Source: Thiomicrorhabdus sp. (GTDB lineage Bacteria; Pseudomonadota; Gammaproteobacteria; Thiomicrospirales; Thiomicrospiraceae). From it: 11,009 bases of DNA. The translations under genes and the position numbers were made by a program. Positions 479 through 6,901 of the stretch are shown piece after piece. Numbering within the stretch: position 1 is the first letter of the stretch; each line of letters begins with the position of its first letter. Where the stretch lies: positions 1 through 11,009 of the forward strand of contig JAKITH010000025.1 in assembly GCA_021648185.1 (NCBI GenBank), written 5' to 3'. The notes below the pieces were generated by a model that had not been told where the DNA came from, did no database searches, and worked only from the letters and a program-made list of their open reading frames with translations.

Positions 479-639
479 CAGTAATATTAACTTTTCTTTA
501 AAAAACCTGATTTAGCACGGCTCCACACTAAAAAAATTTTACAGCCACAATATGCTTTTCCATTTTTTCGTATTGTAACAAGCAGTGTGAAGAACACAAT
601 AGGCATGACTTGTTTTTTTACCCCCCCCTTCTTCAAGGC

Positions 640-648
640 TGATAAAAT
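640..648 (+). promoter_or_regulatory. Probable extended -10 promoter of bioA, next to a C8 tract
   Basis: TGATAAAAT at 640-648 is an extended -10 element (TGn plus TAAAAT) 34 nt before the bioA ATG. No good -35 hexamer is seen. The expected -35 position falls in a run of seven T, one A and eight C (613-628). The remaining bases between the tRNA promoter and bioA (about 479-681) hold no recognisable gene. The bioA Shine-Dalgarno is weak, with only a purine-poor GCGAG 6 nt before the ATG. Confidence 0.5.
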
Positions 649-681
649 ACATTCATTTAAACAAGCTTACCGCGAGCATTT

Positions 682-1980
682 ATGCAAACCAACTGGCATC
701 AACTCTTACAATTCGATCAACAACACATTTGGCATCCTTATGCCAAAATACCCAACCCAATTGACACTATAGGGGTTCAAAAAACAGAGGGTTCCATCAT
801 TACCTTAGCCGACAACAGAAAGCTTATTGATGCGATGTCCTCATGGTGGGCCTGTATTCATGGCTACAACCACCCTGTTATTCAAAAAGCGATGCATCAA
901 CAAATTGATACCATGCCACACATTATGTTTGGTGGATTAACACATCAACCGGCCATTGAACTTGCTCAACGATTAATCAAGCTAACGCCACAAGGACTGG
1001 AAAAAGTCTTTTTTAGCGACTCAGGGTCTATTGCAATGGAAGTTGCAATTAAAATGGCATTGCAGTATTGGATTAGTTTAAAAAAACCCGATAAAAAACA
1101 TCTTATTACGGTTAAAGGTGGCTATCACGGAGATAGTTTCGCGACGATGGCCATCTGCGATCCTGATAATGGGATGCACCGTCTTTTTAATCAAACACTC
1201 ACAAAAAACCACTTTGCACCTAAACCACAGTCTGGCTTTAACATCCTCTCTGACAATCAAGACATCAACGCATTTGAAGCCTTACTCTCAAAGCATCATA
1301 AAACGATTGCGGCCGCCTGTATCGAACCGATTGTTCAAGGCGCTGGGGGAATGCGATTTTATCGCCCTGACTACCTTAAAAAATTGAGCCTACTCTGCCA
1401 AAAGTACCAAGTACTTCTGATTGTGGATGAAATAGCGACTGGATTTGGAAGAACAGGCAAATTATTTGCTTGTGAATGGGCAGAAATCACCCCTGATATC
1501 CTTTGCCTAGGAAAATCCCTGACCGGTGGAAACCTAACACTTGCCGCCACGCTTACGACCAATACGATCAGCGAAGTGATTAGCCAAGGAGAGCCAGGAC
1601 TGTTAATGCATGGCCCTACCTTTATGGCCAATCCATTAGCGTGTGCCACCGCCGTCGCCAGCATTGATTTACTCTTATCCAGCCCATGGCAAGAAAATAT
1701 TCGACGCATTGAAACACACCTACAGAAAGCGTTGCTGCCGTTAAGCGACCTTGCAGGCATTAAAGAGATTAGAGTACTGGGTGCCATTGGAGTGATTGAA
1801 CTTGAAACAGACAATCTAGGGGATAAAGTTCAGGCTTATGCAATAGAAAACGGGGTTTGGTTACGACCTTTTGGCAGGCTTGTTTATACTATGCCCGCCT
1901 TCAATATCCCACAAATCCAACTCAAAAAGCTGACTGATGGCATGATTTCAGCCGTAAAAAAGGCCTTATCTGAACACTAA
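682..1980 (+). CDS. bioA: Adenosylmethionine-8-amino-7-oxononanoate aminotransferase (DAPA synthase)
   Basis: BioA transfers the amino group of S-adenosylmethionine to 7-keto-8-aminopelargonate, giving 7,8-diaminopelargonate in biotin synthesis; it is a cytosolic PLP enzyme. The 432-residue length is normal for the family. Visible landmarks are the N-terminal IWHPY (16-20), the substrate-pocket segment SSWW (53-56), the PLP-phosphate region around SDSGSIAMEVAIKMA (112-126), GGYHGDS (146-152), the PLP-ring aspartate in VDEIATGFGRTG (248-259), the Schiff-base lysine K278 in LGKSLTGG, and GPTFMANPLACA (311-322). The ATG at 682 gives the family N-terminus. The gene stands alone on the plus strand. 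Its downstream neighbour converges with a 9-bp gap. The partner bioD lies about 8 kb away in the same window, and no other bio gene is adjacent. Confidence 0.97.
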   Translation: MQTNWHQLLQFDQQHIWHPYAKIPNPIDTIGVQKTEGSIITLADNRKLIDAMSSWWACIHGYNHPVIQKAMHQQIDTMPHIMFGGLTHQPAIELAQRLIKLTPQGLEKVFFSDSGSIAMEVAIKMALQYWISLKKPDKKHLITVKGGYHGDSFATMAICDPDNGMHRLFNQTLTKNHFAPKPQSGFNILSDNQDINAFEALLSKHHKTIAAACIEPIVQGAGGMRFYRPDYLKKLSLLCQKYQVLLIVDEIATGFGRTGKLFACEWAEITPDILCLGKSLTGGNLTLAATLTTNTISEVISQGEPGLLMHGPTFMANPLACATAVASIDLLLSSPWQENIRRIETHLQKALLPLSDLAGIKEIRVLGAIGVIELETDNLGDKVQAYAIENGVWLRPFGRLVYTMPAFNIPQIQLKKLTDGMISAVKKALSEH

Positions 1981-1989
1981 AAAAATGTT

Positions 1990-4768: not shown

Positions 4769-4792
4769 ACCACCTCCCGTTCATGCAAAACG

Positions 4793-5377
4793 CTAAGCGT
4801 GCTGCTCTAAAAAGTTTTTTAACATCGCATGTCCTTGCTCCGTCAAAATAGATTCGGGATGAAATTGCACCCCTTCAATTGGCAACGTTTTATGACGAAT
4901 GCCCATAATTTCATCTAAGTTACCCTGTGCATCTTGAACCCAAGCCGTCACCTCCAAACAGGAGGGCAGTGTCTCTTGCTCAACCACCAAAGAGTGATAA
5001 CGAGTGGTTTGCACTGGGTTAGGTAAACCCGCAAACATTCCAATATTATGATGGTAAACGTTTGACACTTTACCGTGCATCACCTGTTTTGCACGAACCA
5101 CCTTGCCGTCAAATGCTTGAGCAATACTTTGATGCCCTAAGCAAACCCCCATAATCGGAATTTTTCCTGCAAAATAACGAATCGCATCCACTGAGATGCC
5201 CGCTTCATTCGGCGTACAAGGCCCTGGAGAGATCACTAAATATTGCGGATCAAGCTTTTCAATCTCTTCAATGGAAATATGGTCATTACGATAGACCTCT
5301 ACCTCTTGTCCTAATTCACCAAAATACTGAACGAGGTTATAGGTAAAAGAGTCATAATTATCAATCATTAATAGCAT
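4793..5377 (-). CDS. trpG: Anthranilate synthase glutamine amidotransferase subunit
   Basis: TrpG is the class I glutaminase that supplies ammonia to TrpE. It may also serve aminodeoxychorismate synthase (PabB), as in Bacillus and Pseudomonas relatives; that is not decidable here. The 194 residues are full length. The catalytic triad is visible: C79 in GVCLGHQ, H173 and E175 in GVQFHPES. The oxyanion segment SPGPCTP (50-56) and the N-terminal IDNYDSFTYNLVQ are also clear. The ATG at 5377 lies 12 nt after the trpE stop. The only ribosome-binding candidate is AAGGGGGGG, 5 nt upstream of the ATG, which is unusual for a Shine-Dalgarno and belongs to the repeated G-tract motif of this window. Confidence 0.96.
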   Translation of the reverse strand: MLLMIDNYDSFTYNLVQYFGELGQEVEVYRNDHISIEEIEKLDPQYLVISPGPCTPNEAGISVDAIRYFAGKIPIMGVCLGHQSIAQAFDGKVVRAKQVMHGKVSNVYHHNIGMFAGLPNPVQTTRYHSLVVEQETLPSCLEVTAWVQDAQGNLDEIMGIRHKTLPIEGVQFHPESILTEQGHAMLKNFLEQHA

Positions 5378-5382
5378 TTTTA

Positions 5383-5391
5383 CCCCCCCTT
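5383..5391 (-). promoter_or_regulatory. G7 tract acting as the trpG ribosome-binding site
   Basis: The whole trpE-trpG gap reads, on the minus strand, G7 then TAAAA then the trpG ATG, with the AA of the trpE stop codon giving AAGG at its left edge. It is the only purine-rich element in position to bind the 16S tail. Changes in run length would alter Shine-Dalgarno strength and spacing without touching either protein. Confidence 0.55.
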
Positions 5392-6901
5392 ATTTATTAT
5401 GCAAGTCTAACATTGGATTATCGGTTTTTAATCCGTTGGCAACAAACTGTGCGGCACTAAAGATAGCACGACCTTTACTCATCGTCTCATCCCATTCAAA
5501 CTGTGGTACAGAGTCCGCAACAATACCCGCGCCCGCTTGTACAAATAAAGTTTCATCTTTAATCACGGCCGTGCGGATGGCAATGGCGGTGTCCATATTG
5601 CCATGCCAACCTAAGTACCCTACTGCACCGGCATAAATTCCACGCTTTACAGGCTCCAGCTCATCAATAATTTCCATCGCACGAATTTTAGGTGCACCAG
5701 AAACCGTACCGGCTGGAAAGGTTGCTCGTAACACATCCATTGCAGTCATGTCTGGTTTCACCTCTCCATTCACATTCGATACAATGTGCATCACATGTGA
5801 ATAGCGTTCCACCACCATTTTTTCAGTTAATTCAACGCTGCCCACTTGAGCAATTCGCCCCACATCATTACGCCCTAAATCAATCAACATCAAATGCTCT
5901 GCCAACTCTTTAGGATCATTCAACAGCTCTTGTTCTAATGCCAAATCTTGATCTTGCGTTTTACCACGACGACGCGTTCCTGCAATCGGGCGAACCGTTA
6001 CTTGACGCGCCTCTAGTCGTACCAATATTTCAGGCGAAGATCCCACAATTTTTACCCCCCCCATGTCCACAAAAAACATATACGGGGATGGATTTAAATA
6101 CCGTAAGGCACGATACAGATCAATGGGCTTTTCTTTAAAAGGAATCGACATCTGCTGTGAAATCACCACCTGCATGGCATCGCCCGCTAAAATATACTCT
6201 TGTACTTTGGAGACCGCTTTTTTAAACGCTTCCTCGCCAAAACTGGACTGAAAATCCGCTTCTGTAATGGGCTTATGACTCGGCAGATCTTCTGGCATTG
6301 ACATAGGCTGGCTTAATTTTAAAGCCAACTCGTCCAAACGAGCCAATGCAATCGCCTCTCCATCTACTTCGGTTAAATCGGCATGAACAATGACATGAAC
6401 TTGGCCACTTAAATTGTCAAATACCACCAACTCTTCAGAGACCAATAATTCAATATCGGGTGCACCAACATCGTCCTGTTCAGGCACACTGTCTTTAAGG
6501 CGCTCTTCAATATAGCGAACCGTATCGTAGCCAAAATAGCCGACCAACCCGCCACTAAAAACAGGCATACCTTCTGGTTGAAATACCTTAAACGTTTGCT
6601 GGTACGCTTCAATCCAAGCCAGCGGATCATCCGCCACCTGATGTTGCACCACCACGCCATTTGTAATTTCTTTAATATGATGTCCATTAATCAATAAACG
6701 CGTTTGGCAGGGAAGCCCGATAATAGAATATCGGCCCCATTTTTCGCCACCTTGAACGGACTCAAATAGATAAGAATACGGCCCGTTAGCCAATTTATGA
6801 TAGACACTTAACGGCGTATCATAATCCGATAACACGGTACGCATCACGGGGATACGATTAAAACCTTGTTTTGCCAAATCCGTAAAATTTAGACGATTCA
6901 C
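5390..6901 (-). CDS. trpE: Anthranilate synthase component I
   Basis: TrpE converts chorismate to anthranilate using ammonia from TrpG and is the usual feedback target of tryptophan. The 503 residues are full length. The N-terminal tryptophan-binding element LFES (45-48) followed by VQGGEKWGRYSIIG is retained, so feedback inhibition is expected. The chorismate-binding domain shows GSSPEILV (287-294), RPIAGTRRRG (304-313), HLMLIDLGRNDVGR (336-349), H369 in RYSHVMHIVS, PAGTVSGAPK (396-405) and QAGAGIVADS (455-464). The start is GTG (6901-6899), chosen because it gives the family N-terminus; it overlaps the stop of the upstream 42-codon ORF in a GTGA. Gly281 and Gly282 are encoded inside a run of eight G (6062-6055). 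Confidence 0.97.
   Translation of the reverse strand: MNRLNFTDLAKQGFNRIPVMRTVLSDYDTPLSVYHKLANGPYSYLFESVQGGEKWGRYSIIGLPCQTRLLINGHHIKEITNGVVVQHQVADDPLAWIEAYQQTFKVFQPEGMPVFSGGLVGYFGYDTVRYIEERLKDSVPEQDDVGAPDIELLVSEELVVFDNLSGQVHVIVHADLTEVDGEAIALARLDELALKLSQPMSMPEDLPSHKPITEADFQSSFGEEAFKKAVSKVQEYILAGDAMQVVISQQMSIPFKEKPIDLYRALRYLNPSPYMFFVDMGGVKIVGSSPEILVRLEARQVTVRPIAGTRRRGKTQDQDLALEQELLNDPKELAEHLMLIDLGRNDVGRIAQVGSVELTEKMVVERYSHVMHIVSNVNGEVKPDMTAMDVLRATFPAGTVSGAPKIRAMEIIDELEPVKRGIYAGAVGYLGWHGNMDTAIAIRTAVIKDETLFVQAGAGIVADSVPQFEWDETMSKGRAIFSAAQFVANGLKTDNPMLDLHNK

What the first reader, a model, noticed from the sequence alone, without database searches (positions are those of the whole stretch)
613..6062. 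Repeated motif: seven or eight G followed by TAAAA, four copies, all on the minus strand
Minus-strand G7-8-TAAAA occurs at 628-616, 3274-3262, 5389-5378 and 6062-6050. A given 12-mer is expected about 0.001 times by chance in both strands of 11 kb, although composition bias raises this. The copies lie in four different contexts (a bioA promoter region, a trpC leader, a trpG ribosome-binding site and the trpE coding region), and the bases just outside are only loosely similar (AAG or ATG/ATAG on the left, A/T-rich on the right). They are therefore not copies of one mobile element. The shared orientation suggests a strand-biased genomic motif (uptake, segregation or protein binding) or selected homopolymer switches.
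Basis: partly seen in the sequence, partly recalled or inferred. Interest (0 to 1): 0.7.

Follow-up and report, generated by a model that had tools for sequence, protein, structure and literature searches.

The report
Clade-wide G-tract DNA uptake-like word
A run of seven to ten G's followed by a short A/T stretch is repeated roughly every two thousand bases in the genomes of one group of sulfur bacteria, is kept by evolution, and looks like a 'take up my DNA' label of the kind described in two other bacterial families, though this has not been tested.

Summary
In detail: G7-8 followed by TAAAA occurs four times in the window, all on the minus strand. It is part of a genome-wide word, A-G(7-10)-[AT][AG]AAA[AT]TTT, found in 6 of 62 held genomes of the family (49-124 exact copies of one 15-base form; one copy in the other 56 together). 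In three relatives G7+ runs occur 0.43-0.49 per kb, against 0.02 in Thiomicrorhabdus arctica. The word is about three times denser between genes than inside, forms close inverted pairs, is mostly better conserved than its surroundings, coincides with changed TrpE residues, and is no more strand-biased than ordinary short G runs. Relatives without it often carry another word, mainly the palindrome CAGGCCTG with A/T arms, also about three times denser between genes. These traits resemble DNA uptake sequences (DUS, USS). ComEC passes its cut-off in 5 of 6 word genomes; RecC passes in 0 of 12 genomes. Uptake is untested and no receptor was found. Best reading, about 0.5: an unrelated kind of uptake sequence. 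Rivals: another DNA-binding or self-recognition word, a HIP-like process, Chi for AddAB. A special strand bias and 'homopolymer switches' are not supported.

The parts
613..628 (-). copy 1 of the word: G8 (628-621) plus TAAAAAAA tail; intergenic, between tRNA-Tyr (minus) and bioA (plus)
   Evidence: like-flanked copies in L002 (10635) and L003 (10575)
3258..3274 (-). copy 2: G8 (3274-3267) plus TAAAATTTT; between the DUF454 gene and trpC
   Evidence: conservation at this site not established
5375..5389 (-). copy 3: G7 (5389-5383) plus TAAAAATG; directly after the trpE stop, overlapping the trpG ribosome-binding site and start codon
   Evidence: also in L002, L003, L014; L001 has GGGGAGGAGAAGAATG
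6046..6062 (-). copy 4: G8 (6062-6055) plus TAAAAATTG inside trpE, read ATG GGG GGG GTA AAA (MGGVK)
   Evidence: same in L001, L002, L003, L014 (5 of 5 with the window); the nine other loci shown have no G run of 7 there
3621..3627 (-). fifth G7 run without the A/T tail (CTTTTTTT follows), in the DUF454 gene; a partial match at most

Best explanation
The four tracts are copies of a genome-wide word, consensus A-G(7-10)-[AT][AG]AAA[AT]TTT, that most likely works as a DNA uptake sequence. A surface DNA receptor of the competence system (probably a minor pilin) would bind the G tract and the adjoining A/T-rich, easily bent segment. DNA carrying the word would be taken up preferentially, passed through ComEC and recombined. 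That uptake bias plus recombination would enrich and maintain the word in both orientations, most of all in permissive intergenic DNA but also inside genes; close inverted pairs could double as transcription terminators. Shown: the word, its clade restriction, density, retention, intergenic bias, inverted pairs, the TrpE difference, ComEC, and a different over-represented word in sister lineages. Inferred: that the word is read at uptake, by what, and that the sister word does the same job.
For: Abundance and clade: 6 of 62 family genomes carry 49-124 copies of GGGGGGGWRAAAWTT (backward control 2-8 in those six), the other 56 one copy in total. In a class-wide draw of 369 genomes G8WRAAAWTT occurs 96 times in G003 and once each in two others. 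G7+ density: 340 in 790 kb, 103 in 210 kb, 159 in 369 kb, against 8 in 400 kb of T. arctica. Word: information in the tail falls to 0.07 bit at +9, and -1 is A in 77% of 340; the tail score is highest at G8-9; with the tail, perfect G8 occurs 99 times, one break at positions 2-6 of the eight 6 times (breaks at position 1, 7 or 8, largely the word with a shorter run, 25, 29 and 51). Placement: 0.30-0.39 per kb in genes, 1.04-1.09 between genes. Inverted pairs in G003 within 60 bp: 19 facing and 7 back-to-back against 2 same-direction; genome-wide 5-91 facing and 14-61 back-to-back matches in six word genomes, 0 and 0 in six others (overlapping matches counted more than once). Retention: G7+ kept in 18/21, 17/21, 36/70 and 35/44 aligned cases, random 8-mers identical in 22-31% (the tract criterion is looser). 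Flanks of tailed copies are less conserved than random sites in 4 of 4 comparisons (two pairs, each both ways; 8-22 copies each). TrpE: MGGVK in 5 of 5 word sequences, not in the nine others. Sister lineages: another word, about three times denser between genes. Machinery: ComEC over cut-off in 11 of 12 genomes. Published USS/DUS traits (inverted pairs as terminators, dialects by subclade, conserved words in permissive places, USS core followed by CAATTTT or CAAATTT) were read as passages in PMC12616744 and PMC2397512.
Against: I saw no uptake or transformation data for this clade. No receptor was found: a coarse search of prepilin-like genes in eight genomes gave none specific to the word genomes, and PF12019 (GspH) matched 0 of 12. 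ComEA matched in only 3 of 6 word genomes, and ComEC over cut-off is missing in G003; gaps in draft genomes may explain this but were not checked. Run length varies from 7 to 13 in G003, unlike the fixed words of DUS and USS. In G001 and G004 back-to-back pairs outnumber facing ones. Retention G003 to G045 is 36 of 70, and G003 to the one L001 locus 1 of 4 (G002 locus 4 of 4, window to G003 3 of 3). The sister word is mostly an exact palindrome (80 of 110 sites in T. arctica), more like a HIP than an uptake sequence, and shares no core with G8. G007 and G037 have ComEC but few or no sites of either word in what was searched. Absence from recently acquired genes, a DUS trait, was not tested.
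Confidence: 0.5

Rival explanations
1. The word is bound inside the cell by a chromosome-organising or other DNA-binding protein, or read by an unknown self/non-self system, and is selected in place; competence is not involved.
For: Density, near-random spacing and retention fit any genome-wide binding word; no receptor was found.
Against: It is tolerated in a conserved coding stretch with changed residues, and most close pairs are inverted, as in uptake sequences. I recall no chromosome protein with sites this dense whose word differs between lineages of one family.
Confidence: 0.18
2. HIP-like process: mutation, repair or methylation bias creates and keeps iterated words (as proposed for cyanobacterial HIP1), with no role in uptake.
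For: The sister word is mainly the palindrome CAGGCCTG (80 of 110 sites in T. arctica, 52 of 71 in G006); alternate palindromes replace HIP1 in some cyanobacteria (PMC4390886, abstract and outline seen).
Against: The window's word is not a palindrome and holds no obvious methylation site; the tail is conserved on one side only.
Confidence: 0.14
3. Chi-like recombination hotspot that regulates AddAB during double-strand break repair.
For: PF12705 (PDDEXK_1) gives open frames of about 930-990 and 1,040-1,250 aa, fitting AddB and AddA by size (matches in 11 of 12 genomes, none in G001); G-rich Chi sites recalled. G7+ runs in genes are sense in 239 of 369, and sense copies lie on the presumed leading strand in 173 of 239.
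Against: RecC over the cut-off in 0 of 12 (two weak matches, both in genomes without the word). G7+ runs are no more leading-biased (382/605) than G5 (701/1013) or G6 (198/264) runs; convergent intergenic copies are 22 to 21. Intergenic enrichment and inverted pairs are not Chi traits as I recall them.
Confidence: 0.08
4. Terminator or other RNA-level element.
For: Two chosen facing pairs fold into strong hairpins (z -4.3 and -5.2); 17 of 19 facing pairs are intergenic by their first member.
Against: Only 19 facing and 7 back-to-back close pairs among 341 runs in G003; 369 of 605 runs lie inside genes.
Confidence: 0.04
5. Homopolymer slippage: mutational growth of G runs, or phase-variation switches.
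For: Run length varies 7-13 in G003; A/T runs of 8 or more are also commoner in G003 (186 in 790 kb) than in T. arctica (29 in 400 kb).
Against: One-sided tail, retention at aligned sites, uneven frame use and the constant G8 in trpE.
Confidence: 0.05

Closest known systems
Pasteurellaceae uptake signal sequence (Hin-USS / Apl-USS, extended forms AAAGTGCGGTCAATTTT and AACAAGCGGTCAAATTT as given in PMC12616744)
   Same: G-rich core directly followed by an A/T segment of the AAATTT kind; many copies in both orientations; inverted pairs; words that follow subclades
   Different: Core is an uninterrupted G tract of variable length, no second A/T block was seen, different family, uptake untested
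Neisseriaceae DNA uptake sequence (DUS) and its dialects
   Same: Lineage-specific words, conserved, placed in permissive DNA, inverted pairs
   Different: Unrelated sequence; DUS dialects share an inner core (PMC12616744), whereas CAGGCCTG and G8 share none
Cyanobacterial HIP1 and alternate HIPs
   Same: Iterated genome-wide word, another word in some lineages; the sister word here is mostly palindromic too
   Different: The window's word is not a palindrome; methyltransferases were not examined here
Chi sites of RecBCD/AddAB
   Same: Short, G-rich, over-represented (Chi traits recalled)
   Different: No strand bias beyond ordinary G runs, no RecC over cut-off, intergenic bias and inverted pairs here

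Membership tests
DNA uptake sequence (DUS/USS) | Hundreds of copies of a short word, far above expectation | tested here: met
   341 G7+ runs in 790 kb of G003 against 8 in 400 kb of T. arctica; 49-124 exact 15-mers per genome in 6 genomes
DNA uptake sequence (DUS/USS) | No general orientation bias | tested here: inconclusive
   presumed leading strand 382 of 605, a bias, but not above G5 (701/1013) and G6 (198/264) runs
DNA uptake sequence (DUS/USS) | Frequent close inverted pairs | tested here: met
   19 facing, 7 back-to-back, 2 same-direction within 60 bp in G003; whole genomes
DNA uptake sequence (DUS/USS) | Word more conserved than its surroundings, in permissive places | tested here: met
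   small numbers, and the weakest cases are 36 of 70 and 1 of 4
DNA uptake sequence (DUS/USS) | Words restricted to subclades (dialects) | tested here: inconclusive
   G8 in 6 of 62 genomes, one group in a TrpE tree (91/99; G045 and G046 not in it); the sister word shares no core with it, so 'dialect' is inference
DNA uptake sequence (DUS/USS) | Competence machinery in the carriers | tested here: inconclusive
   of 6 word genomes, ComEC over cut-off in 5, ComEA matched in 3, PilQ-family secretin matches in 6, all below the cut-off, prepilin N_methyl matches in 6
DNA uptake sequence (DUS/USS) | A specific receptor (minor pilin) | tested here: inconclusive
   coarse search, none found
DNA uptake sequence (DUS/USS) | Absent from recently acquired genes | not tested
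DNA uptake sequence (DUS/USS) | The word raises uptake or transformation | not testable with these tools
   needs a cultured carrier
Chi site | RecBCD or AddAB present | tested here: inconclusive
   RecC 0 of 12 over the cut-off; AddAB-like PF12705 matches in 11 of 12, with and without the word
Chi site | Co-orientation with replication beyond that of other G runs | tested here: not met
   replication direction presumed from GC skew
HIP (highly iterated palindrome) | Palindromic word | tested here: not met
   one-sided tail; met by the sister word
REP/MITE repeat | Extended shared sequence beyond the core | tested here: not met
   0.07 bit or less per position from +9 on and upstream of -4
Phase-variable homopolymer switch | Length change toggles a gene | tested here: not met
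   trpE tract G8 in frame in 5 of 5 sequences; other tracts not followed one by one

The most novel reading that the evidence does not exclude
The family of Thiomicrorhabdus and Thiomicrospira holds a third, independent uptake-sequence system whose word was replaced outright: CAGGCCTG with A/T arms in at least eight sampled genomes, and a homopolymer-based word, G8 plus an A-tract, in the window's clade. This would be an uptake word built on a single-base tract, and a natural case of a bacterial mating barrier that switched its password.
Probability: 0.38. Interest if true: 0.85.

Novelty: new variant of a known kind. Interest (0 to 1): 0.7.

Why it matters
In what I read, uptake words are described in Neisseriaceae and Pasteurellaceae. 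A system in sulfur-oxidising bacteria, with unrelated words in neighbouring lineages, would let one ask how such words arise, how they are swapped, and whether molecular drive can rewrite conserved proteins such as TrpE. Record titles suggest that some sister-lineage carriers are cultured strains (T. arctica DSM 13458, strain zzn3), so the idea can be tested at the bench.

Tried and rejected
Mobile element: rejected, since shared sequence ends at about +8. Strand-segregation signal: rejected, because the bias is no higher than for G5/G6 runs. Phase switch: rejected for trpE. RecBCD Chi: unlikely, RecC over cut-off in 0 of 12 (RecB and RecD were not searched). Receptor hunt: prepilin N-terminal matches in nine genomes; 20 stretches of eight of them fetched and scanned with a simple motif. 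Four ortholog groups of seven genomes each look like a type II secretion pseudopilin set (label recalled); most other candidates fell into one unresolved cluster of 37 (type IV pilin-like, label recalled) and three singletons; none is evidently specific to the word genomes. TTGGATTG recurs in loops of some inverted pairs, but its density in G003 (108 per Mb) is near that of T. arctica (88). PF12019 matched none of 12 genomes. Literature: one search found no paper; the lists (6 of 6, 10 of 11 and 10 of 34 papers shown) and of 35 and 36 (7 of 7 and 12 of 47) name no uptake word in these genera. Only listings were seen there, the library is open-licence only, and (the sister word as letters; 3,291 papers, 10 shown) was uninformative.

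One search counts sites once (T. arctica 110 in 417 kb, 0.26 per kb, not 0.46).

Dropped before counts: stretches reading N (one search left one out); runs too near locus ends in the logo and conservation scripts; BLAST matches under 300 bases; four of the 17 loci were not used. Gene calls are from my own simple codon-usage caller, not a standard one. Of the G003 loci (790 kb of about 1.9 Mb), the 20 come from contigs known to hold the pattern (0.395 G7+ runs per kb), the 20 were not chosen by it (0.469 per kb). All G045 loci come from contigs with matches; those of G004 were not chosen by it.
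Full report
The observation. GGGGGGGTAAAA occurs four times in 11,009 bases, always on the minus strand, where shuffles give a mean of 0.05. A fifth G7 run, also minus, has no A/T tail.

Where the window comes from. No genome is held for it. TrpE finds its closest relatives among Thiomicrorhabdus MAGs: L001, L002, L003 and L014, 88-90% identical. 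In a TrpE tree of 13 loci and the window, the window groups with these four (support 91/99, just under the tool's mark for strong support), near T. arctica and others. G045 and G046 are not in that tree.

Genome-wide counts. GGGGGGGTAAAA is present 16, 33, 111 and 72 times in the genomes of L001, L002, L003 and L014 (G001, G002, G003, G004), and 0 or 1 times in six further genomes; the backward pattern occurs 0-2 times per genome. In the family, which in this collection is also the whole order (62 genomes in both calls), GGGGGGGWRAAAWTT has 49-124 copies in six genomes (G001, G002, G003, G004, G045, G046; backward control 2-8) and one copy in the other 56 together (a 14-base form, gives 77-168 in the same six). 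Among 369 genomes drawn from the class, G8WRAAAWTT has 96 copies in G003, one each in two others, and none elsewhere.

The word. In 790 kb of G003 there are 341 G7+ runs, 7 to 13 long, mostly 7-10. An order-3 Markov model expects about 23 runs of 8 and 7 of 9; 101 and 75 are seen, while runs of 5 and 6 are fewer than expected (588 against 817, 145 against 248). The run is preceded by A (77% of 340) and followed by [AT][AG]AAA[AT]TTT; information falls to background at about +9. The tail match peaks at G8-9 and is near background at G4-5; with the tail, a G8 broken at positions 2-6 is rare (6, against 99 perfect). G004 and G045 give the same picture (0.49 and 0.43 per kb; T. arctica 0.02).

Placement. 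Summed over G003, G004 and G045 there are 605 runs: 369 in genes, 219 between genes, 17 at edges. Per kb that is 0.30, 0.39 and 0.32 in genes and 1.04, 1.09 and 1.09 between genes. Spacing after merging close copies has a coefficient of variation of 1.00 (n = 464), as for random placement. The strand that is G-rich in its stretch carries 382 of 605, against 701 of 1013 for G5 and 198 of 264 for G6 runs, so the bias is not special. In genes 239 of 369 are sense; sense copies are 173 to 66 on the presumed leading strand, antisense 71 to 59, convergent intergenic 22 to 21 (all). In G003, sense runs begin in frame 2, 0 and 1 in 59, 46 and 14 cases, which fits reading as Gly-Gly-Val/Glu-Lys and avoidance of the TAA (inference). 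Most close pairs are inverted: 19 facing, 7 back-to-back, 2 in the same direction within 60 bp in G003. Whole-genome matches for facing pairs are 5, 39, 91, 31, 47 and 36 in G001, G002, G003, G004, G045 and G046, and for back-to-back pairs 19, 20, 34, 61, 43 and 14; in six other genomes both are 0 (overlapping matches inflate these). Two chosen facing pairs fold strongly as RNA; termination is not shown.

Conservation. Between G003 and G004 (85% identical where aligned) 18 of 21 and, the other way, 17 of 21 G7+ runs are kept; between G003 and G045 (82%) 36 of 70 and 35 of 44. Single loci give 3 of 3 (window to G003), 4 of 4 (G003 to L002) and 1 of 4 (G003 to L001). Random 8-mers are identical in 22-31% for the two genome pairs and 16-17% for the single loci; G/C runs of 4-5 are unchanged in 54 of 158, 54 of 119, 143 of 509 and 145 of 458 for the four genome comparisons. 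The tract criterion (a run of 7 or more nearby) is looser than exact identity, so the contrast is overstated. For runs with the tail the figures are 8/8, 9/9, 13/22 and 12/13, and their flanks are less identical than random sites in all four comparisons (0.845 and 0.849 at the closest). The trpE copy is the clearest case: all five word sequences read ATG GGG GGG GTA AAA (MGGVK), while nine other loci have MGDLQ, MGSLQ, MGNVQ, MGDFQ, MDDLQ, LGGFQ or LDDFH and no G run of 7. By outgroup comparison the residues changed in the word clade (inference). The trpG copy overlaps the ribosome-binding site in four of five.

A second word in the relatives. T. arctica, taken as a control, has its own over-represented word: CAGGCCTG with A/T arms, mostly palindromic, often extended to GACCAGGCCTGGTC. 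Counted once per site, AGGCCT with at least one outer arm (AGGCCTG or CAGGCCT) has 110 sites in 417 kb (0.26 per kb; 0.19 in genes, 0.56 between), 80 of them palindromic; G006 (strain zzn3) has 71 in 123 kb (0.57; 0.41 and 1.68), G019 45 in 100 kb (0.45; 0.38 and 1.02). Short single stretches of G005, G009, G030, G050 and G055 hold 9, 12, 10, 7 and 4 sites in 12-17 kb. The ratio between and within genes is thus about 3 to 4, like that of G8, but the density in T. arctica is lower than that of G8 in its carriers. The next base after AGGCCTG differs: G in 78% (T. arctica) and 74% (G019), T in 40% (G006), C in 72-74% (G005, G009) of both-strand counts. Sites are few in G003, G045, G026, G037, G038 and G007 (0.01-0.12 per kb; palindromic form 2, 1, 2, 0, 0, 0), none in 10 kb of G011; G008 has 5 in 11 kb, one palindromic; the palindromic form is 0 in the stretches of G004. 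So lineages appear to carry one word, the other, or neither, but the sampling outside G003 and T. arctica is thin.

Mechanism. Many copies, both orientations, intergenic bias, inverted pairs, retention in less conserved surroundings, a G-rich core plus an A/T arm, and restriction to a clade are traits of DNA uptake sequences as described in PMC2346458 (first of three parts read), PMC3630211, PMC12616744 and PMC2397512 (passages read). ComEC is over the cut-off in 11 of 12 genomes, not in G003; ComEA matches in 9 of 12. RecC is over the cut-off in none; PF12705 proteins of AddA/AddB size exist with and without the word. Hence 0.5, with another binding word, a HIP-like process and Chi as rivals.

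Verdict on novelty. It resembles an uptake sequence on the sequence-level tests that gave an answer, but several tests were inconclusive and the functional test is open; I therefore call it uptake-sequence-like, a new variant of a known kind. Searches listed no paper on it (listings only).

Noticed in passing
L088-L107 and L016 (T. arctica), L005 and L216-L219, L220-L223, L004, L011, L238, L240, L241: Relatives without the G8 word carry another over-represented word, CAGGCCTG with A/T arms, mostly palindromic, 0.26-0.83 sites per kb, about three to four times denser between genes where tested.
   Followed up: partly
G003 loci, e.g. L051 10656-10815, L058 18142-18301: A separate repeat ending in TTTCTATCTGGGGATTAGGG: 31 exact copies of its 15-base core in 790 kb, 30 of them intergenic, several as inverted ends 144-167 bp apart; looks like a small mobile (MITE-like) element.
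   Followed up: partly
L054 19463, L061 13175, L071 15158, L078 1661, L085 17413: Loops of several facing pairs share GGATT/AATCC; the octamer TTGGATTG is about as dense in G003 as in T. arctica.
   Followed up: partly
window 5375-5389: The word doubles as the trpG Shine-Dalgarno region and touches the start codon; L001 has GGGGAGGAG there.
   Followed up: yes
window 3726-3741, plus strand: GGGAGGGGGAATAAAA between trpD and the DUF454 gene, perhaps a decayed or nascent copy (read).
   Followed up: no
window 3285-3665, minus: A DUF454-family gene (match below the curated cut-off) sits inside the trp cluster between trpD and trpC.
   Followed up: no
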